DNA of 64,000 bases, taken from positions 62,001 to 126,000 of the forward strand of contig WLOQ01000002.1 in the NCBI GenBank assembly GCA_009699245.1, written 5' to 3'. Below, in pieces: positions 1,493-32,979 of this stretch (position 1 is its first letter; the number at the start of each line of letters is the position of its first letter). Source of the stretch: Actinomycetota bacterium (GTDB lineage: Bacteria > Actinomycetota > Thermoleophilia > Solirubrobacterales > Solirubrobacteraceae). The notes beneath the pieces were generated by a model. The model searched no databases. It had not been told where the DNA came from and saw nothing but the letters and a program-made list of their open reading frames with translations. The position numbers and the translations under genes are program-made.

Positions 1493-1506
1493 CGAACATA
1501 TGTACG
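1493..1506 (-). promoter_or_regulatory. LexA operator (SOS box) of the DEDDh/GIY-YIG nuclease
   Basis: On the gene strand this reads CGTACATATGTTCG, one mismatch from the perfect palindrome CGAACATATGTTCG found at 27615 and 30378. It is one base upstream of the ATG, and its flanks (TG on the left, CA on the right) extend the dyad to 18 bp. The form CGAAC-N4-GTTCG is the established actinobacterial/Gram-positive LexA target. Binding here would cover the -10 region and transcription start of a leaderless mRNA. Confidence 0.85.
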
Positions 1507-1609
1507 CATACCGGCGGACGGTCTGCACGCCGGGTTGCGGGGGGAACCGATCCAAACCGCCGCCCAGCCGGGTATACATCCCCGAACCGCACGAGGAGGT
1601 CACAGCGTC

Positions 1610-24255: not shown

Positions 24256-27200
24256 TCAGCGACGACGCCCCTGGGCGAACGACATGACGGCCGGGGCGAC
24301 CGCCCGGAAGTCGCCGCCCTCTCCCTCCTGTTCGCGGCGCTCGCGCTCGCGCTCATCGAGCGGTGAGAGGACGCGGACGGCGGCTGCCGGACGCCCGGGC
24401 GCTTCGAGCGGCAGGAGCCGTCGGACGAGGACATTGACCGTCCCGCCCCCTGCCGGGTGGCGCTCGAGACGGCCCTCGGCGATGACGAGCGGCTCGGTGC
24501 GCACCGTGAGGCGGTGCCGCTCATAGACCTGCGGCGGGACGACGAGGTTGACCGTCCCGGTCTCGTCCTCCAGGAGCATGAAGCAGACGCCGCTCGCGGT
24601 CCCCGGGCGCTGGCGTGCGACGACGAGCCCGGCGACCCGAACGAAGGCCTCGTGGGGCACCTGCGCGAGGCCCGCGCTGGTCGGCGTGTCGCGCAGCGCG
24701 GGGACCGAGCGCCGCAGAAGCGCCAGCGGATGGCTCCCGGTCGTCAGGCCGGTGGTGGCGTAGTCGGCGAGCAGCTCCTGCCAGCGGTCGAGGCCCGCGA
24801 GGGCGGGCGCCGCGGGCAGCTCGAGCGGCAGCGCGAGCTGCGTCCCCCCACGGTCGCGCACGGGTGCGGCGGCGACCCCGAGACGCCAGAGCGCCTCACG
24901 GCGCGCGTGGCGCGCATCGACCCCGTCGCGCATCGCCAGCCGATCGCAGGCGCCGGACCATGCCAGGCGCTCGAGCGAGCGCCGGCCGGCACCGGCCCGC
25001 GCGGCGAGGTCCGCGAGCGACCGGAACGGCCCGTGGGACTCCCGCTCCCCGACGAGCTCGGAGACCTCCTGCACCTTGACCCCCAGGACGTGACCGAGCC
25101 CGAGCCGCACGGCCCCGTCCGCGGTCACGGTGCAGCCCAGGGCGCTCTCCTCGACATCCGGTGGGTGGACCGTGATCCCACGCCGCTGCGCCTCGTGGAC
25201 GAGCGCGTCCGGCGGGTAGAAGCCCATCGGCTGCTCGTCGATGAGCGCGGCGAGGAACTCCGGCCCGTAGTGGACCCGCAACCACGTGGACTGGTAGGCG
25301 AGCAGCCCGAAGGCGGCGCCGTGCGCCTTCGGGAAGCCGAACCCCGAGAAGCCGCAGATCATCGTGAAGACCCGCTCCGCGAGCGCCTCGTCGACATCCG
25401 GCCAGCGCGTCATCGCGCCGTCGATGAAGCGCCGGTGGTGGGCCTCCATCGCGCCCTTCGAACGCTTGCGGCTCATCGCCCGGCGCAGACTCTCCGCCTC
25501 TCCCGAGGAGAAGCCCGCAAAGGCCATCGCGACCTCGATGACCTGGTCCTGGAAGATGATCGTCCCGAGCGTCTCGCGCAGGACCGGCTCGAGCGACGGG
25601 TGGTCGTAGGGGATCTGGAAGCCGGGGTCGCGGCGCAGGCGCTCCCGCCGCGCGATGTACGGATTGACCGCGCCGCCCTGGATCGGCCCCGGGCGGACGA
25701 TCGCCACCTGCACGGTGAGATCGTCGAGCGTCTCCGGTCGCGTGCGCACGATCGACGCCATCTGGGCGCGACTCTCGATCTGGAAGACCCCGGTCGTCTC
25801 TCCCCGCTGGATCGTGCGGTAGACCTCGGGGTCGTCGTAGGGGATCCGCGAGAGATCGATGCGCTCCCCACGCCGCGCGGCGATCTGCTCGACGCAGCGC
25901 TCGACCGCGGAGAGCATGCCGAGCCCGAGCAGGTCGATCTTCAGGAACCCCGCGTCCGCGCAGGAGTCCTTGTCCCACATGACCATCTGGCGGCCCTCCA
26001 TCGCCGCGGGGACCACCGCACAGCAGTCGATCAACGGCCGGGTCGCGACGATCATCCCCCCGGAGTGCTGGGAGAGGTGGCGCGGGAGCCCGTGAGCCTC
26101 GGCCGCCAGGTCGGCGAGATGGCGCCAGCGCGACGGCTCGTCGCCGGCGAGGCGCTCCGGCCCGAGGGCGCTGACGATGTCCTCCTCGACCTTGTGGCCC
26201 GACCACCCCTCAGAGGCGCGGGCGACCCGCTCGATCTCACCGGGCGGCAGGCCGAGCGCCCGGCCGAGCTCCCGGATCGCCGAGCGGGCGCGGAAGGTCG
26301 GGAAGGCGGCGACGAGCGCCGACCGCTCGCGGCCGTGGCGCTCGTGGATCGCGGGGATCAGCCGCTCGCGCACGTCGCGCGGGAAGTCGAGGTCGATGTC
26401 CGGGAGCGCAGTGATCCCCTCGTTGAGGAAGCGGCCGAGGAGCAACCGGTTGGCGACCGGGTCCACGTGGGAGAGCCCGGTGAGGTAACAGACGATCGAG
26501 GAGACCGAGGAGCCGCGCCCGCGACCCGGCGGCAGCAGCGCCCGTGCGGTGTCGGGACCGCGGACCTCGACGGCGACCTCACGCGCCAGGTCGAGGATGT
26601 CCCGATGCAGGAGGAAGAAGCCGGAGAGCCCGAGCCCATCGATGAGCGCCAACTCCTCCTCAAGGCGGGCGGCGGCCTCCTCCCGGATCCGATGGCCCTG
26701 CGGGTAGCGCTCCTCAAAGCGCGCGTGGCACGCCTGCGCGAGCGCGCGCGCGGCGGTGGTGTCCTCGGACCCGGGATAGCGGTACCCGAGATCCTGCGCG
26801 AGGTCGAAGTCCAGCGTCTGCGCGAGGCGCACCGTCTCGGCGACCGCGTCGGGATGGTCCTCGAACCGGGCGACCATCGCCTCGGGCGTGGCGAGCACAT
26901 GCGCGTGGTTCCCCCGGCGCAGCGGCTCCGATGCGTCGAGCGTCATCCCCTCGCGCACGGCGACGAAGGCGTCCTGGAGCCGCGCGCGCGCCGGCGTGTG
27001 GGCGTGGACGTTGCCGGTCGCCACGCACGGCACCCGCAGCCGCTCGGCGAGCCCGGCGAGCCCGCGGTTGAGCGCGCGGTCGTGGCGCGAGAACGGCCGC
27101 TGGAGCTCGACGCGAAAGGCGTCGCGCCCGAAGCCGGCGAGCAGCCGGCGCATCGTCGGCTCGTCCCGGACCCCGTCGCGCGCACAGCCGCTCAGGCACA

Positions 27201-27615
27201 CCAGCCCCTCCGCGTGCTCGAGGATGTCCTCCATCCGCAGGCTCGGCGCAGCCCGGCGGCGCATGGTCCCGCCACGTGTGTCCGCGTGCGCGCGCGTGAG
27301 GAGGCGGCAGAGGTTCGACCAGCCACGCGCGTCACGGACGAGCAGCGTCAGATGCCGGTGATGCGCATCCGGGCCGGCCTCACCCTCGTCGTCGCGCACG
27401 CGGACCTCTGCGCCGTGAATCGCCCGCAGGCCGAGATCCCTCGCCGCCTGGGCGAACTCCATCGAGCCGCTGACCGTGTCGTGGTCGGTGAGCGCGAGGG
27501 CGGTGTGCCCCCGCTCGAGCGCGGCCACGACGAGCTCCTCAGGCAGCGATGCCCCGTCGAGGAAGGAGAAGGCCGAGTGGCAATGGAGCTCGACGTAGGG
27601 GACCACCGATGACAC
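24256..27615 (-). CDS. dnaE2: error-prone DNA polymerase DnaE2 (ImuC)
   Basis: About 1119 residues, the DnaE2 length. The PHP domain begins at once (YVELHCHSAFSFLDG, LTDHDTVSG). The polymerase palm has PGRGRGSSVSS and the catalytic PDIDLDF. A helix-hairpin-helix and an OB domain (VRVAGLVVARQRPG) end the protein. DnaE2 performs mutagenic translesion synthesis with ImuB. Start choice: an ATG at 27621 lies inside the LexA box, so I prefer GTG at 27615, which begins on the last base of the box just as imuB and the nuclease start 1-3 nt after theirs. A leaderless SOS transcript is inferred. Confidence 0.95.
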   Translation of the reverse strand: MSSVVPYVELHCHSAFSFLDGASLPEELVVAALERGHTALALTDHDTVSGSMEFAQAARDLGLRAIHGAEVRVRDDEGEAGPDAHHRHLTLLVRDARGWSNLCRLLTRAHADTRGGTMRRRAAPSLRMEDILEHAEGLVCLSGCARDGVRDEPTMRRLLAGFGRDAFRVELQRPFSRHDRALNRGLAGLAERLRVPCVATGNVHAHTPARARLQDAFVAVREGMTLDASEPLRRGNHAHVLATPEAMVARFEDHPDAVAETVRLAQTLDFDLAQDLGYRYPGSEDTTAARALAQACHARFEERYPQGHRIREEAAARLEEELALIDGLGLSGFFLLHRDILDLAREVAVEVRGPDTARALLPPGRGRGSSVSSIVCYLTGLSHVDPVANRLLLGRFLNEGITALPDIDLDFPRDVRERLIPAIHERHGRERSALVAAFPTFRARSAIRELGRALGLPPGEIERVARASEGWSGHKVEEDIVSALGPERLAGDEPSRWRHLADLAAEAHGLPRHLSQHSGGMIVATRPLIDCCAVVPAAMEGRQMVMWDKDSCADAGFLKIDLLGLGMLSAVERCVEQIAARRGERIDLSRIPYDDPEVYRTIQRGETTGVFQIESRAQMASIVRTRPETLDDLTVQVAIVRPGPIQGGAVNPYIARRERLRRDPGFQIPYDHPSLEPVLRETLGTIIFQDQVIEVAMAFAGFSSGEAESLRRAMSRKRSKGAMEAHHRRFIDGAMTRWPDVDEALAERVFTMICGFSGFGFPKAHGAAFGLLAYQSTWLRVHYGPEFLAALIDEQPMGFYPPDALVHEAQRRGITVHPPDVEESALGCTVTADGAVRLGLGHVLGVKVQEVSELVGERESHGPFRSLADLAARAGAGRRSLERLAWSGACDRLAMRDGVDARHARREALWRLGVAAAPVRDRGGTQLALPLELPAAPALAGLDRWQELLADYATTGLTTGSHPLALLRRSVPALRDTPTSAGLAQVPHEAFVRVAGLVVARQRPGTASGVCFMLLEDETGTVNLVVPPQVYERHRLTVRTEPLVIAEGRLERHPAGGGTVNVLVRRLLPLEAPGRPAAAVRVLSPLDERERERREQEGEGGDFRAVAPAVMSFAQGRRR

Positions 27616-27628
27616 GAACATATGTTCG
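27615..27628 (-). promoter_or_regulatory. LexA operator of dnaE2
   Basis: A perfect 14-bp palindrome CGAACATATGTTCG, preceded by TATG on the gene strand. It overlaps the preferred GTG start by one base. The internal TATGTT has the TANNNT form of a -10 box, so LexA would block RNA polymerase directly. Confidence 0.93.
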
Positions 27629-27652
27629 CATACGTGATGGACGCGCGCCGGG

Positions 27653-28879
27653 TCATCGCGTGCAGTCGGTGCGACGGCGCTCCCCCACCACCGGATCACG
27701 GACGACCGCGCCGACGAGCTGGAGCTCCTCTCCTGCTCGGTCATATGTGAGCCCCAGCCCCACCCCGACACCGGCGTCGACGCCGGTCGTGCGTCGCGCC
27801 GCGCGCTCGACGCGATAGAGGCGCACGTGTTCGGTCCCGGCGCGGGCGAACCGCCGCAGCAGCGCCGATGGGACCGCCCCGGTGCGATGCGGCGCCGCGC
27901 TGCGCAGCGACCGCACGAAGGCCGCGGCGACGGCGAGGTTCTGCGGATCGGTGAGATCGAGGTGGCGCTCGCGCTCGAGCAGGCCGCCGCCGCGCAGGCG
28001 CACACCGGCCCGGCCCGCGAGCGCCGCCAGCGGCGCGGGGAGCGCCACGCCGCCGCGCAGCCCGTGGACCGTCGTCACGACGAGGTCGAGCGGCCGGCCG
28101 CGAGCCTGCGTGACGAGCGCCCACTGCTCGGCGCCGCTGACGCCGCCCGTCGCCGTGATCCCGGCGAGCGACGCGTCGGCGAAGAGGTCGGTGCGCCGGC
28201 GCAGGAGCAGCGTGCGCTCCCCCGTGCGACGGTCCGTGCGCACGCCGCGCAGGTCCTCGATCGCGAGTGCGACGCCGACGCGGCCGAGCCCGGCGGAGAG
28301 CCCGGTGTCGAGCCCGCCCTCGGAGAGCACCGCGTCGGGCGGCGGGCCGGCGCGACGTCGCCCGCCACGGCCCACCCGTGGACGCACCCGGCGGTCCCGG
28401 CGGTCCAGGCGCACGAGGAGCAGGTCGGCCTGGCGCTCCCCGGCGACGGTCCACGAGCGCCCGGCGCCGAGGCGCATGAGCGCCGACGCCTCGAGCCGCG
28501 CACCGGCGCTCAGGCGCCCCACCGAGACGCCGCCACCGAGCAGCACCCCGAACCCGAGCCCCTTGCGCGCGATGACGCTGACGCGCACGCGGCCGTCCGA
28601 GAGCCGCTCGCGCAGCACCGTGCGCCCGCCGCGCAGCCGCACGACGGCGATGCGCAGGGCGAGGCCCTCGGTCGCCGTGCTCGCGCGCACGACGCAGGGC
28701 GCACGATCGCGCTCGCAATCGCCGGCACGCACGATGCACAGCCCGCGCGCGAACTGGACGGCGAGTGCTTGGGGGATCCCGGCGCCGGCGCCGACCACCG
28801 CCGTCAGTCCGAGGATCGCCGCGAGCAGGAGGACGAGCGCGAGGTATTCGATCGAGGACTGGCCGACCTGGGCGCGCAC
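27653..28879 (-). CDS. Tad-pseudopilin-like protein with a large unknown C-terminal domain (408 aa)
   Basis: The N-terminus GQSSIEYLALVLLL is a class of prepilin signal used by Tad/Flp systems: Gly at residue 6, Glu at mature position 5 followed by Tyr, then a 20-residue hydrophobic helix. The other 370 residues are Arg/Gly/Leu-rich, mostly predicted beta strand, with no domain I know. The usual Flp pilin is under 80 residues, so this is a minor-pseudopilin or surface-anchored protein. It starts with GTG at 28879. It lies between the DUF6504 gene and dnaE2, 69 nt and 37 nt from them respectively, with no LexA box of its own visible. Confidence 0.7.
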   Translation of the reverse strand: MRAQVGQSSIEYLALVLLLAAILGLTAVVGAGAGIPQALAVQFARGLCIVRAGDCERDRAPCVVRASTATEGLALRIAVVRLRGGRTVLRERLSDGRVRVSVIARKGLGFGVLLGGGVSVGRLSAGARLEASALMRLGAGRSWTVAGERQADLLLVRLDRRDRRVRPRVGRGGRRRAGPPPDAVLSEGGLDTGLSAGLGRVGVALAIEDLRGVRTDRRTGERTLLLRRRTDLFADASLAGITATGGVSGAEQWALVTQARGRPLDLVVTTVHGLRGGVALPAPLAALAGRAGVRLRGGGLLERERHLDLTDPQNLAVAAAFVRSLRSAAPHRTGAVPSALLRRFARAGTEHVRLYRVERAARRTTGVDAGVGVGLGLTYDRAGEELQLVGAVVRDPVVGERRRTDCTR

Positions 28880-28948
28880 CCGAGCACGGTCGCTCGAGCG
28901 ATGTCACAGAGCAACGACCGCCGTGTCACGAAGCTGCGCCGGGATCGC

Positions 28949-29194
28949 TCAGCGCTGGCGCGACCATCCACCGGTCACGAGGTCGCGGAAGACGACGAGG
29001 TCGCGCCCGTCCACGGTCACGACCTCCCAGTAGCGGCGGCGCAGTGGGCGGGGCGTCCACCAGCGATCCTCGACGAGCCAGGACTCGCGCACCGACACCA
29101 CCTCGTGGCCGTCGACCTCGAGCGGCCGCCCACGCGGTCCGGGGATGATGCGCGCGGGACGCGGCTCGGCGAGCCGCCGTGCGGCAGGGGTCAT
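28949..29194 (-). CDS. DUF6504 family protein (81 aa)
   Basis: Small basic protein. The conserved core is VRESWLVEDRWWTPRPLRRRYWEVVTVDGRDLVVFRDL in form (tryptophan pair, R-R-R-Y, then strand and F-R-D). In actinobacteria genes of this family sit with imuB and dnaE2, and the protein is presumed to belong to the mutasome, though no biochemical role is known to me. The ATG at 29194 follows the imuB stop by 4 nt, so it is translated with imuB from the SOS promoter at 30378. The protein ends in GGWSRQR, a short basic tail. Confidence 0.85.
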   Translation of the reverse strand: MTPAARRLAEPRPARIIPGPRGRPLEVDGHEVVSVRESWLVEDRWWTPRPLRRRYWEVVTVDGRDLVVFRDLVTGGWSRQR

Positions 29195-29198
29195 CGCC

Positions 29199-30374
29199 TC
29201 AGCCCTCGAACGGCGCGAGGACGACACGCCGCTCCGGGATCCGCGAGTCCGGGTCGACCTCAAGCACGCGCAGCGCCGCCTCCGGGCCCGCCGCGGTGCG
29301 CGCCTGCCGCACGGCGTCGCGCAGCCGCTCACGCCGGCGCTCGGCGGGCTCCTCGAGGAGCGCCGGCCCCGTGGCGGCGGCCGCACCGAGACCCTCGGCC
29401 GTCAGTCGCAGCGACTCGGCCGGTGCCGGAAGGAGCACCAACCTTGCGACGAGCGCCGGGCGCATCCGCGCCGGGTCTGCGGTCGGCTCGCGGAAGACCG
29501 CGCGCTCACGCCAGGTCCCGCCCTCGACGAGGGTCGCCGCGAGGACGGCGGCGCGCAGTGTGCGCCCGCGGCGCTCCGGGCGGGCGAGCAGGCGCTCGAT
29601 GAGCAGGACGAGCGCGCGATCGAGCTGCACCCCCGAGGCGGCCTCCTCAAGGTCGAGCGTTTCCTCGAGCGTCTCCTGCGGCGCGCGCGGACGCAGCGGA
29701 CGGTCGAGCCCGTGCGCGAGGTCGTGAGCGAGCAGCCCGGCGGCGCCGAAGCGGTCGGCGAGCGCGGCCCGCGAGAGCGCGGCGACGTCACCGAGCGCCG
29801 TCAGGCCGAGACGCTCGAGCTCCGCCGGCAGCCGCGCCGTCTCCTCCCGGCGGCGCAGCAGCGCGACCGGTTCGCCCGCGAGATCCTCAGCGCCACGGAT
29901 GTGGTGCGCGCGGCGGGTCCGAGCGCGGGCGGCTCCGGCGAGCGCGCAGAAGCGCGACGGGCCTGCGCCGATGCGCGCGGGCAGGCGCAGGGCATCACGC
30001 ACCGCGCCGACGACGCCGTCGATGGAGCCGCCGTGGAGCCGCCGCAGCCCGGCGGCCTCAAAGCACGCTTCGCCTGCGCGCTCGCTCTCGACCGCGGCAC
30101 CGACCGTCTCCAGACGCTGGAGCACCCGCTCCCACGCATCCGCCACGCCGACCGGGTCGGGTGGGATCAGCGCGAGTCGCGGTGCGCGGGCGAGCGCCTC
30201 GCCGAGGCGCATGCCCGGGTGGATGCCCAGCGCCTCCGCGGCCTGCGAGACCTCGCCGACCGCCTGCTCGCGGCCCGACTCAGGTGCCAGTGCCATCGGC
30301 CCCTGCGCGAGCGCAGCGCGGCCGCCTGCGGCGATCGCGAGCTCAAAGCGGGGTAAGAGGACACAGACGACCAC
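29199..30374 (-). CDS. imuB: ImuB-like Y-family DNA polymerase homologue
   Basis: 391 residues with the Y-family palm/fingers/little-finger layout. Catalytic acids are absent: the first motif reads CVLLPRFELAIAAG where an active polymerase has D-M-D-A-F-F, and the second reads ACFEAAGLRRLHGG instead of S-I-D-E. This is the defining feature of ImuB, a non-catalytic adaptor that links DnaE2 to the beta clamp. LexA box CGAACATATGTTCG ends 3 nt before the GTG at 30374, so I chose that start over the ATG at 30425, which would place the operator inside the gene. The operon continues with DUF6504. Confidence 0.9.
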   Translation of the reverse strand: MVVCVLLPRFELAIAAGGRAALAQGPMALAPESGREQAVGEVSQAAEALGIHPGMRLGEALARAPRLALIPPDPVGVADAWERVLQRLETVGAAVESERAGEACFEAAGLRRLHGGSIDGVVGAVRDALRLPARIGAGPSRFCALAGAARARTRRAHHIRGAEDLAGEPVALLRRREETARLPAELERLGLTALGDVAALSRAALADRFGAAGLLAHDLAHGLDRPLRPRAPQETLEETLDLEEAASGVQLDRALVLLIERLLARPERRGRTLRAAVLAATLVEGGTWRERAVFREPTADPARMRPALVARLVLLPAPAESLRLTAEGLGAAAATGPALLEEPAERRRERLRDAVRQARTAAGPEAALRVLEVDPDSRIPERRVVLAPFEG

Positions 30375-30377
30375 GAT

Positions 30378-30391
30378 CGAACATATGTTCG
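30378..30391 (-). promoter_or_regulatory. LexA operator of imuB
   Basis: A perfect palindrome CGAACATATGTTCG, identical to the dnaE2 operator and 3 nt from the imuB GTG. The flank TG on the left matches the other boxes. TATGTT inside the box could be the -10. Confidence 0.93.
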
Positions 30392-30450
30392 CATGCGGCT
30401 CGCCATTCGGCAAGGACCGCAGCACGCCTTGCGCGGCGCGGTCTCGTCGG

Positions 30451-30855: not shown

Positions 30856-30883
30856 GAAGGGCCCCGCTTGCGCGAGGCCCTTC
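30856..30883 (-). terminator. intrinsic terminator after rnpB
   Basis: An 8-bp perfect stem, GAAGGGCC with GGCCCTTC, around a GC-rich 12-nt loop that itself can pair, immediately after the 3' end of RNase P RNA on the minus strand. A short T-containing tail (TATGTTG) follows. It also ends 13 nt before the SCP2-like ATG. Confidence 0.8.
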
Positions 30884-30887
30884 CGTA

Positions 30888-31213
30888 GCGTGCCGATAAG
30901 CCGGATTCTGTCGTGAACGGCCATCCATCTCTGCGGCCTACCTGGACCTCGGCGGGCAGCCTGCAAACGGTCCTGCTTGGCCTTGCATCCGGTGGGGTTT
31001 ACCTGGCCGCCGCGTCACCGCGACGCCGGTGCGCTCTTACCGCACCATTGCACCCTTACCTGTGCGCAGCCCACGTGAAGCTGCGCCATCGGCGGTGTCT
31101 TTCTGTGGCACTGTCCCGCGGGTTTCCCCGGGTCGGTCTCCCGACCACCGCGCCCTGTGATGTCCGGACTTTCCTCGACGGGTTGTCTCCCCCGCCGCGG
31201 CCGTCTAGCACGC
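30888..31213 (-). ncRNA. rnpB: RNase P RNA (type A)
   Basis: The catalytic RNA of RNase P, which matures tRNA 5' ends. Minus-strand reading shows the conserved 5' core GAGGAAAGTCCGGAC, ACAGTGCCACAGAAA, GCAAGGCCAAGCAG and the 3' core ACAGAATCCGGCTTA. Ends were set by the P1 helix: GCGTGC at the 5' end pairs with GCACGC at the 3' end. At about 326 nt it is shorter than most type A RNAs (around 350-430), so some peripheral helices are reduced. A terminator follows directly. Confidence 0.95.
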
Positions 31214-31245
31214 ATCTCTGACGGTAGCGCGCACCCGGCCCGATG

Positions 31246-31843: not shown

Positions 31844-32113
31844 TCAGCTCAGCGCCGAGCCGCAGCGCCGGCAGCTCCCGGCCACGGGCAGAGGCCCGGC
31901 TGCGAACCGCGCGACCATCGCGCCGCCGCAGACCGGACACTCCGCCGCATGGTCGGCGCGGAGGCCCTCCCATACGCCGACGATGAGCTCGTCGAGCGTG
32001 AGCCTCCCCTGGTCACCGCGCGCCTGGGCTCCGGACGCGCCGGGGTCGGCGCCGAGGCCCGGCACGGGACCGAGGTTGAAGAAGATGGTCGGCGCGGCGA
32101 CGGCGTGGGCCAT
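31844..32113 (-). CDS. zinc-ribbon protein co-encoded with lexA (89 aa)
   Basis: The ATG at 32113 overlaps the lexA stop (TGATG), so the two are translationally coupled. The C-terminus carries CPVCG at about 60-64 and CRRCG at about 80-84, an intact four-cysteine zinc ribbon. The N-terminal half is Gly/Ala/Pro-rich with one helix (LDELIVGVWEGLRAD). A nucleic-acid- or protein-binding partner induced together with LexA is a plausible inference, but no family name is known to me. Confidence 0.72.
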   Translation of the reverse strand: MAHAVAAPTIFFNLGPVPGLGADPGASGAQARGDQGRLTLDELIVGVWEGLRADHAAECPVCGGAMVARFAAGPLPVAGSCRRCGSALS

Positions 32114-32760
32114 CAGACGCTCCTCAGAAGCCCGACCACCCGCCCGACGATGCGTACGTCCGTGGCGATGATCGGCTCCATCGTGGAGTTCTCCGGCTGC
32201 AGGCGAATGTGGTCGGCCTCACGGAAGAACCGCTTCACCGTCGCCTCATCGGCCTGCTCGCCGACCAGGGCCACGACGATCTCCCCGTCGGCGGCGGTGT
32301 CCTGCGGCCGCACGACGACGAGGTCGCCTTCGAGGATCCCCGCGTCGATCATCGAGTCGCCGCGCACGCGCAGGACGAACTCGCCCTCCGCGCCGCCCGC
32401 GGCCTGCGGGACGTCGATGTACTCCTCGATGTGCTCCTCGGCAAGCACCGGACCGCCGGCCGCGACGGCGCCGACGAGCGGCAGGCCCGCTCCACCGCCG
32501 GTGAGCCCGACGAACGCCCCCGACATCGCGGCGCCTGCCTGACGCGTCGCGCGGTCGAGCAGCTCGAGCGCTCGCGGCTTGGTCGGGTCGCGGCGGATCG
32601 CGCCGAGACGCTCGAGATTCGCCAGGTGCGCGTGCACCGTGGACGACGAGGCGAGGCCGACGGCCTTCCCGATGTCGCGGACCGTCGGCGGATATCCGTA
32701 CTTCGCCGAGTGGGTCTTGATGAAGTCGAAGATCTCCTGCTGGCGCTTCGTGAGGTCCAT
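32113..32760 (-). CDS. lexA: LexA repressor
   Basis: 215 residues. The winged helix-turn-helix is at 1-65 (YPPTVRDIGKAVGL, then SSSTVHAHLANLERLG). The auto-cleavage Ala-Gly bond is at 101-102 (AVAAGG). The catalytic serine is S136 in RGDSMIDAG and the lysine is K176 in EATVKRF, so self-cleavage stimulated by RecA filaments should work. GAGGAG lies about 6 nt before the ATG. Its own operator lies 22 nt upstream, just after a TACTGT -10. It represses the boxes at 1493, 27615 and 30378 as well as itself. Confidence 0.97.
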   Translation of the reverse strand: MDLTKRQQEIFDFIKTHSAKYGYPPTVRDIGKAVGLASSSTVHAHLANLERLGAIRRDPTKPRALELLDRATRQAGAAMSGAFVGLTGGGAGLPLVGAVAAGGPVLAEEHIEEYIDVPQAAGGAEGEFVLRVRGDSMIDAGILEGDLVVVRPQDTAADGEIVVALVGEQADEATVKRFFREADHIRLQPENSTMEPIIATDVRIVGRVVGLLRSV

Positions 32761-32781
32761 GGCTCCTCGTGGGGACTGGAT

Positions 32782-32802
32782 CGAACGTGTGTTCGCACAG
32801 TA
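32782..32802 (-). promoter_or_regulatory. lexA promoter with LexA operator
   Basis: On the gene strand, TACTGT (32797-32802) is a -10 box followed at once by the operator CGAACACACGTTCG (32782-32795), which would cover the transcription start. Unlike the other three SOS genes, lexA keeps a leader with a Shine-Dalgarno, allowing efficient translation while being autorepressed. Confidence 0.88.
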
Positions 32803-32861
32803 GCGCGGTCCATGGACGGAACGCAAGCCGGAGGGACCCTCGGCCGCCCGGAGGCCGATGC

Positions 32862-32895: not shown

Positions 32896-32979
32896 GCGCC
32901 GATGGCGGAATTGGTAGACGCGCTAGGTTGAGGGCCTAGTCCGGGAAACCGGGTGGAGGTTCGAGTCCTCTTCGGCGCA
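32896..32979 (+). tRNA. tRNA-Leu (GAG)
   Basis: 84 nt with a seven-pair acceptor stem (GCGCCGA with TCGGCGC, discriminator A), D arm AATTGGTAGAC, anticodon stem CTAGG/CCTAG around TTGAGGG, a long variable arm and GGTTCGAGTCC in the T arm. The long variable arm plus GAG anticodon makes it leucine, reading CUC/CUU. CCA is not encoded. Confidence 0.96.

What the first reader, a model, noticed from the sequence alone, without database searches (positions are those of the whole stretch)
27600..30400. SOS boxes abut or overlap start codons: leaderless damage-induced transcripts
The distance from box to start is +1 nt (nuclease ATG 1491), +3 nt (imuB GTG 30374) and -1 nt (dnaE2 GTG 27615), leaving no space for a Shine-Dalgarno. 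The inner TATGTT fits a -10. lexA alone keeps a leader with ribosome-binding site. The layout predicts that LexA covers the transcription start and that start calls further upstream (27621, 30425) are wrong.
Basis: partly seen in the sequence, partly recalled or inferred. Interest (0 to 1): 0.6.

Follow-up and report, generated by a model that had tools for sequence, protein, structure and literature searches.

The report
SOS operators doubling as leaderless promoters
In this actinobacterium (a member of the Solirubrobacteraceae) the DNA-damage repressor's binding site is fused with the core promoter and touches the first codon of its mutagenic-repair genes, so these genes are very probably read from messages with no leader; leaderless damage genes are known from mycobacteria, but this fused arrangement looks like a clade-specific variant.

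Summary
Family orthologues confirm it: 31/35 dnaE2 and 27/30 imuB loci carry a box with the start codon 6-12 nt beyond the same box position, without Shine-Dalgarno, and in all three reading frames relative to the box. This supports leaderless (or 1-5 nt leader) messages and speaks against the upstream start calls. The -10 is the upstream half of the box, TGC-GAACAT (57/58 loci), with TTG 17 nt upstream (imuB) or CGTC 16 nt upstream (dnaE2). In lexA the same elements stand at the same distances before a separate TANNNT just upstream of a flipped box. The CGTC element, also at recA and the nuclease, has the register of the mycobacterial PafBC motif, and the genome encodes a fused PafBC. Best reading: LexA blocks the -10 and start site of leaderless, probably PafBC-assisted promoters. 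No 5' ends were mapped; this is inference from sequence.

The parts
27615..27628 (.). LexA box of dnaE2, CGAACATATGTTCG; its last base on the - strand is the first base of the GTG start
   Evidence: conserved in 31/35 family dnaE2 loci
27622..27627 (-). predicted -10 hexamer GAACAT of dnaE2, 6 nt before GTG 27615
   Evidence: TGnGAACAT in all 31 box-bearing family dnaE2 loci
27628..27630 (-). TGC, extended -10 position of dnaE2
27640..27643 (-). CGTC element 16 nt before the -10 of dnaE2 (PafBC-like -26 element)
   Evidence: register
24256..27615 (-). dnaE2 coding sequence with the preferred start GTG 27615
30378..30391 (.). LexA box of imuB, CGAACATATGTTCG
30385..30390 (-). predicted -10 hexamer GAACAT of imuB, 10 nt before GTG 30374
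   Evidence: GAACAT in 26/27 family imuB boxes
30391..30393 (-). TGC, extended -10 position of imuB
30408..30413 (-). -35-like TTGCCG, 17 nt before the -10 of imuB
   Evidence: TTG at this spacing in 16/27 imuB loci
29199..30374 (-). imuB coding sequence, start GTG 30374
1493..1506 (.). LexA box of the nuclease, CGTACATATGTTCG on the - strand
1499..1504 (-). predicted -10 TACATA of the nuclease, 7 nt before ATG 1491
1517..1520 (-). CGTC element 16 nt before the -10 of the nuclease
   Evidence: L087
1..1491 (-). DEDDh exonuclease/GIY-YIG nuclease, start ATG 1491, runs off the window
32782..32795 (.). LexA box of lexA, downstream of its -10
32797..32802 (-). -10 TACTGT of lexA, 2 nt before GAAC
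   Evidence: TANNNT 2-4 nt upstream of the box in 30/30 lexA loci
32815..32818 (-). CGTC element 16 nt before the lexA -10
32763..32768 (-). GAGGAG, ribosome-binding site of lexA (2 nt before ATG)
   Evidence: SD-like 4-mer in 24/30 lexA leaders
32113..32760 (-). lexA
   Evidence: TIGR00498 above cut-off

Best explanation
At dnaE2, imuB and the nuclease the LexA operator is superposed on the core promoter of a leaderless gene. The upstream half of the operator plus the first two spacer bases is the -10 element (TGC-GAACAT at dnaE2 and imuB; TACATA at the nuclease). RNA polymerase starts 6-9 nt downstream, at or 1-4 nt before the start codon, so the message has no ribosome-binding site and is read from its 5'-terminal AUG/GUG. 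Bound LexA covers the -10 and, at dnaE2, the start site; LexA cleavage after damage frees the promoter. At lexA the -10 is a separate TANNNT just upstream of the box, so its message keeps a leader with a ribosome-binding site. An element CGTC(C/G) 16 nt before the -10 (dnaE2, lexA, nuclease, recA) is probably the binding site of the fused PafBC activator; imuB has a TTGC -35 instead. Shown from sequence: positions, spacings, conservation, presence of LexA and PafBC genes. Inferred: the transcription starts, LexA occlusion, leaderless translation, PafBC binding.
For: Genome: TANNNT-Nk-ATG/GTG is enriched only at k=6-9 (ATG 22, 25, 17, 22 against about 3.6; GTG 15, 16, 8, 11 against about 4; CTG flat), so leaderless starts are common here. 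Family: start codon at k=6-11 after GAACAT in 31/31 box-bearing dnaE2 loci (11 genera) and k=6-12 in 27/27 imuB loci (16 genera); no SD-like 4-mer between box and start in any of them, against 24/30 in lexA leaders. TGnGAACAT: TG in 57/58 and GAACAT in 57/58 dnaE2+imuB boxes in the sense direction, while the last two spacer bases vary; lexA boxes have GAACAT in 1/30. TTG 17 nt before GAACAT in 16/27 imuB loci; CGTC 16 nt before GAACAT in 16/40 dnaE2 loci; lexA has TTG (20/30) and CGTC (26/30) at the same distances before its TANNNT; generic leaderless promoters have 0/135 and 1/135. The box occurs in all three frames relative to the gene (dnaE2 20/2/9, imuB 5/11/11), in-frame stops lie within 60 nt upstream in 12/31 dnaE2 loci, and 10/31 have no in-frame start upstream. 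PafBC: 699-aa protein matching A. aurescens PafBC 6SJ9 end to end, with HTH_PafC and two WYL domains.
Against: No RNA 5' ends, no LexA or RNA polymerase binding data for any member of the clade. GAACAT is a poor -10 (lacks T at position 1). The imuB start in the window is at k=10 and some relatives at 11-12, so a leader of a few nt is as likely as none. dnaE2 has a further in-frame GTG at 27606 (k=15) that sequence alone cannot exclude. Fewer than half of dnaE2 loci show the exact CGTC element. A genome scan for TCCGTCS-N11-TANNNT with one mismatch gives no more hits than the reversed control, so that element rests on gene-anchored conservation. My start rule (smallest k of 5 or more) favours starts near the box, although the start nearest the conserved core gives nearly the same picture.
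Confidence: 0.82

Rival explanations
1. One reading: inner TATGTT is the -10 and transcripts start at GTG 27615, GTG 30374 and ATG 1491.
For: TATGTT fits TANNNT in the window, and for imuB the distance (5 nt) is borderline.
Against: TATGTT to start is 1 nt (dnaE2) and 3 nt (nuclease), outside the 6-9 nt leaderless peak. Inner TANNNT is present in only 9 of 31 dnaE2 boxes (spacers ATAT/ATAC). TTG and CGTC elements are 5 nt too far from it.
Confidence: 0.06
2. Translation starts upstream of the box (ATG 27621 in the box, GTG 30425, ATG 1509) and the operators are intragenic, with an ordinary leader from a promoter further upstream.
For: Open frame runs through the boxes in the window; S. venezuelae dnaE2 was reported with an intragenic LexA site (PMC9380542).
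Against: The box lies in different frames in different orthologues, in-frame stops intervene in 12/31 dnaE2 loci, and 10/31 dnaE2 loci have no upstream in-frame start. Promoter elements are locked to the box. In S. venezuelae dnaE2 was the only gene with an intragenic site that was damage-regulated, which fits a start called too far upstream.
Confidence: 0.06
3. The layout is real, but the messages have leaders of about 5-10 nt and initiate at the next codon downstream (dnaE2 GTG 27606) in a Shine-Dalgarno-independent way, not as leaderless messages.
For: In-frame GTG 27606 exists; imuB starts at k=10-12 exceed the main peak.
Against: No conserved second start; most relatives have their start at k=6-9.
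Confidence: 0.1
4. GAACAT is conserved only because LexA prefers AT there, so the promoter lies elsewhere.
For: LexA half-sites constrain most of the sequence.
Against: lexA's own boxes use the mirror orientation (CGAACACATGTTCG), so LexA accepts either. TG at the extended -10 position is in 57/58 dnaE2/imuB boxes but 9/30 lexA boxes. TTG and CGTC have fixed spacing to GAACAT.
Confidence: 0.06

Closest known systems
Leaderless lexA of Mycobacterium tuberculosis (PMC2897130) and leaderless mycobacterial genes in general (PMC4633059)
   Same: Damage-regulated gene whose translation start coincides with the transcription start; ATG or GTG at the 5' end suffices.
   Different: Here lexA is the leadered one and the translesion genes are leaderless. 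In the passages read, these papers do not describe an operator that is itself the -10.
Actinomycetia dnaE2 promoters (loci L247-L266, read here)
   Same: LexA box plus a start spaced like a leaderless gene.
   Different: There the box usually sits just upstream of a separate TAnnnT (GTTCGATAnnnT-N6/7-ATG); here the box contains the -10 and reaches the start codon.
PafBC / RecA-NDp promoters of mycobacteria (TGTCGG-N10-TANNNT, PMC8151990; tTGTCRgtg-8 nt-TannnT, PMC5656591; -26 motif, PMC11804915)
   Same: GTC at the same distance from the -10, at recA and other repair genes; PafBC encoded in the genome.
   Different: First base C not T and usually CGTCC; here the -10 it aligns with is inside a LexA box at dnaE2. 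Binding untested.
Deinococcus: -10 next to the reading frame (PMC12340547) and DdrO/RDRM radiation regulon (PMC5552922)
   Same: Leaderless messages are common; at DR_0053 the damage-repressor site overlaps the mapped transcription start.
   Different: Unrelated repressor (DdrO/IrrE) and operator; no fusion of a LexA box with the start codon.

Membership tests
LexA/SOS regulon (Gram-positive type box) | GAACN4GTTC operator in the promoter | tested here: met
LexA/SOS regulon (Gram-positive type box) | LexA with HTH and S24 peptidase domains encoded | tested here: met
   TIGR00498, PF01726, PF00717
LexA/SOS regulon (Gram-positive type box) | LexA binding and RecA-dependent induction | not testable with these tools
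   no binding or expression data for this clade
Leaderless mRNA | -10 at the spacing to ATG/GTG seen in leaderless genes of the genome | tested here: met
   k=6 (dnaE2), 7 (nuclease); 10 (imuB, edge of the peak)
Leaderless mRNA | no Shine-Dalgarno before the start | tested here: met
   0/31 dnaE2 and 0/27 imuB loci with an SD-like 4-mer between box and start
Leaderless mRNA | RNA 5' end at the start codon | not testable with these tools
   needs dRNA-seq or Cappable-seq
Extended -10 promoter | TGn directly before the hexamer; A and T at hexamer positions 2 and 6 | tested here: met
   TGC-GAACAT, TG in 57/58 and GAACAT in 57/58 loci
PafBC (RecA-NDp) promoter | TGTCnG-N10-TAnnnT | tested here: inconclusive
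   GTC core and spacing met at dnaE2, lexA, nuclease and recA; first T is C, and the dnaE2 hexamer is GAACAT
PafBC (RecA-NDp) promoter | PafB/PafC encoded | tested here: met
   fused 699-aa PafBC, 6SJ9 E=4e-25 over 22-684, HTH_PafC, two WYL/WCX
PafBC (RecA-NDp) promoter | PafBC-dependent induction | not testable with these tools
   no expression data
ImuB-DnaE2 mutasome | error-prone DnaE2 plus ImuB-type Y-family protein | tested here: met
ImuB-DnaE2 mutasome | ImuA/ImuA' present | not tested
   not looked for

The most novel reading that the evidence does not exclude
In Thermoleophilia a single sequence of about 20 bp is at once LexA operator, extended -10, transcription start and start codon, with the direction of transcription set by an asymmetric spacer (GAACAT reads towards the gene; the flipped box serves lexA). 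A PafBC-type -26 element is phased to the same -10, giving a two-input (activator AND NOT repressor) leaderless switch for the mutagenic polymerase.
Probability: 0.5. Interest if true: 0.62.

Novelty: new variant of a known kind. Interest (0 to 1): 0.5.

Why it matters
It shows how tightly repression, promoter recognition and translation start can be packed when a message needs no leader: the same bases are read by LexA, by sigma factor and by the ribosome. It predicts protein N-termini and start sites that gene callers may get wrong. It also gives Thermoleophilia, whose damage response I found no paper on, a testable two-regulator model (LexA plus PafBC) for the genes behind induced mutagenesis.

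Tried and rejected
Inner TATGTT as -10: rejected on conservation and spacing. Upstream starts 27621, 30425, 1509: rejected because the box changes frame among orthologues and stops intervene. CGTC as a general -35 of the genome: rejected, 1/135 generic leaderless promoters have it. Genome-wide regulon search with TTGNNNCCGTC-N12-TA or TCCGTCS-N11-TANNNT: too unspecific; the second is not above the reversed control, though its three exact hits include lexA and a recJ-like gene. Davis et al. 2002 (the mycobacterial SOS box) is not held. A search for a Corynebacterium LexA paper found nothing. The nuclease box as an old SOS site: only about 7 of 30 family orthologues have a box-like sequence, so it looks like a gain at an already leaderless, CGTC-bearing promoter.
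Full report
WHERE IT IS. The window is part of a 1.95-Mb, 71.6% G+C genome (19 contigs, 99.4% complete). Named relatives of its dnaE2 are Solirubrobacteraceae (Actinomycetota, Thermoleophilia), the closest at 74-82% identity. All four genes lie on the minus strand: nuclease (start 1491), dnaE2 (27615), imuB (30374), lexA (32760).

OBSERVATION. Two are perfect CGAACATATGTTCG. Seven matches within 3 mismatches occur in the window against a chance mean of 0.95, with no shuffle of 100 reaching 7. The whole genome has only six sites within 2 mismatches, four of them in this window.

ARE LEADERLESS STARTS NORMAL HERE? Without calling any gene, I counted TANNNT followed by k bases and a start codon in 440 kb of this genome. 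ATG is enriched at k=6, 7, 8, 9 (22, 25, 17, 22 against a background of about 3.6) and GTG likewise (15, 16, 8, 11 against about 4); CTG is flat and Shine-Dalgarno words show no comparable peak. So leaderless genes are common, and the usual -10-to-start distance is 6-9 nt, with a tail at 10.

From the inner TATGTT the starts would be 1 nt (dnaE2), 5 nt (imuB) and 3 nt (nuclease) away. The inner hexamer is also not conserved: in 31 family dnaE2 boxes the spacer is ATGT (18), ATAT (5), ATAC (4), ATGC (3), ATCT (1), so only the first two spacer bases, AT, are fixed.

THE -10 IS THE UPSTREAM HALF OF THE BOX. In orthologues of dnaE2 and imuB the near-invariant sequence is TGC-GAACAT (TG in 57 of 58, GAACAT in 57 of 58). 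It carries TG at the extended -10 position and A and T at hexamer positions 2 and 6. From its end the start codon is at k=6-11 in 31/31 dnaE2 loci (11 genera) and 6-12 in 27/27 imuB loci (16 genera). In the window: dnaE2 k=6, imuB k=10. The commonest dnaE2 arrangement puts the last G of the box as the first G of the GTG start.

TWO INDEPENDENT UPSTREAM ELEMENTS AGREE. imuB has TTG exactly 17 nt before GAACAT in 16/27 loci (window: TTGCCG-N17-GAACAT). dnaE2 has CGTC exactly 16 nt before GAACAT in 16/40 loci. lexA, which has a separate TANNNT 2-4 nt upstream of its box in 30/30 loci, shows TTG (20/30) and CGTC (26/30) at the same distances before that TANNNT. Generic leaderless promoters of the genome show 0/135 and 1/135. 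Aligning on GAACAT for dnaE2/imuB and on TANNNT for lexA therefore brings the same elements into register; aligning on TATGTT does not.

ORIENTATION. The lexA box is CGAACACATGTTCG in most relatives, the reverse complement of the commonest dnaE2 box CGAACATGTGTTCG. LexA thus accepts either orientation, but dnaE2 and imuB use only the one that points GAACAT at the gene (GAACAT forward 57/58 against 1/30; Fisher P=6e-21, not corrected for relatedness).

UPSTREAM STARTS. The box lies in all three frames relative to the protein (dnaE2 20/2/9, imuB 5/11/11), in-frame stops lie within 60 nt upstream in 12/31 dnaE2 and 8/27 imuB loci, and 10/31 dnaE2 loci have no in-frame start upstream at all. The operator is therefore not coding, and 27621 and 30425 are not credible starts. 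A published parallel: in Streptomyces venezuelae a LexA site in dnaE2 was filed as intragenic, and dnaE2 was the only gene with such a site that was damage-regulated (PMC9380542), which fits a start called too far upstream.

THE NUCLEASE. Only about 7 of 30 family orthologues have a box-like sequence, yet 29 of 30 have CGTC or TGTC 16 nt before a hexamer that is followed at k=4-12 by an in-frame start. The hexamer is typically TAnnAC/TAnnCC. That test over-counts slightly because several starts are tried; under a stricter rule (k=6-9, A at hexamer position 2, CGTC only) offset 16 gives 22 loci against at most 6 at any other offset. In the window: CGTC-N12-TACATA-N7-ATG 1491. So the nuclease was probably leaderless first and gained a LexA box on top.

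WHAT THE CGTC ELEMENT MAY BE. recA shows the same element: 21 of the 23 family loci whose start could be anchored carry CGTC-N12-xAnnnT, mostly as TTCCGTCCG (an earlier notebook entry gave this count wrongly as 24 of 25). The M. tuberculosis PafBC motif is TGTCGG-N10-TANNNT with variants (PMC8151990; also PMC5656591), i.e. GTC in the identical register. The genome encodes a fused PafBC (699 aa, E=4e-25 to 6SJ9, PF19187 plus two WYL domains). In this genome two other nucleotide/DNA-metabolism genes have near-perfect copies: a recJ-like DHH gene with GTG at k=6 and a class II ribonucleotide reductase. I rate a PafBC role at about 0.6. Scans for the element alone are not above control.

HOW FAR IT EXTENDS. 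The fused layout is seen in dnaE2 of two Solirubrobacterales families and in another family of the same class (L269, L272, L273). Orthologues without a box mostly start right after the stop codon of a small upstream gene, as expected inside an operon. In Actinomycetia (L247-L266) the dnaE2 box usually lies just upstream of a separate TAnnnT, often 6-7 nt before an ATG/GTG: probably leaderless too, but with the box in another position.

MECHANISM, step by step. Shown from sequence: operator, predicted -10 and start codon share the same bases; leaderless spacing; upstream elements in register; LexA and PafBC genes present. Inferred: polymerase uses GAACAT; the 5' end is at or within 4 nt of the start codon; LexA occludes polymerase; cleavage of LexA releases it; PafBC helps at dnaE2, lexA, nuclease and recA; ribosomes initiate on the 5'-terminal GUG/AUG as shown in mycobacteria (PMC4633059).

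KNOWN OR NEW. Leaderless SOS genes are known (M. tuberculosis lexA, PMC2897130), and so are PafBC promoters. I found no paper that describes a LexA operator serving as the -10 of leaderless translesion genes, or any study of this response in Thermoleophilia, within an open-access library only. Hence: new variant of a known kind.

LIMITS. No experiment; related genomes are not independent (counts by genus); many are metagenome assemblies; the window's imuB start is at the edge of the leaderless distance; GTG 27606 remains a possible dnaE2 start.

Noticed in passing
lexA loci L121-L146 (not the window species): In 23 of 30 lexA orthologues the centre of the LexA box supplies an ATG 8-10 nt after the -10, i.e. 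at leaderless distance. It opens a frame of mostly 10-22 codons that mostly ends around the lexA start (two are in frame with lexA): a possible leaderless upstream frame controlling lexA. The +10 stop is partly forced by the conserved MDLT codons.
   Followed up: partly
G000:C1:237638-237651 (L005 1501-1514): A further box, CGAACGTCTGTTCG, upstream of TACCGT and a lysine/alanine-rich, histone-like reading frame; box upstream of the -10 as in Actinomycetia.
   Followed up: partly
G000:C13:236682-236695 (L004 1501-1514): Box AGAACATATGTTCG (minus strand) about 200 nt upstream of a murA-like frame near a contig end, close to what looks like rRNA; no convincing gene starts at it.
   Followed up: partly
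window 30881-31216 (-) and 32896-32979 (+): RNase P RNA (class A) lies between imuB and lexA, and a tRNA gene lies upstream of lexA.
   Followed up: yes
window 27653-28879 (-): Open frame between imuB's downstream gene and dnaE2 with no Pfam or NCBIfam hit; if real, it separates dnaE2 from imuB here.
   Followed up: no
G000:C13:91724-91747 and C2:91090-91113: PafBC-like element before a recJ-like DHH gene (GTG at 6 nt) and before a class II ribonucleotide reductase.
   Followed up: partly
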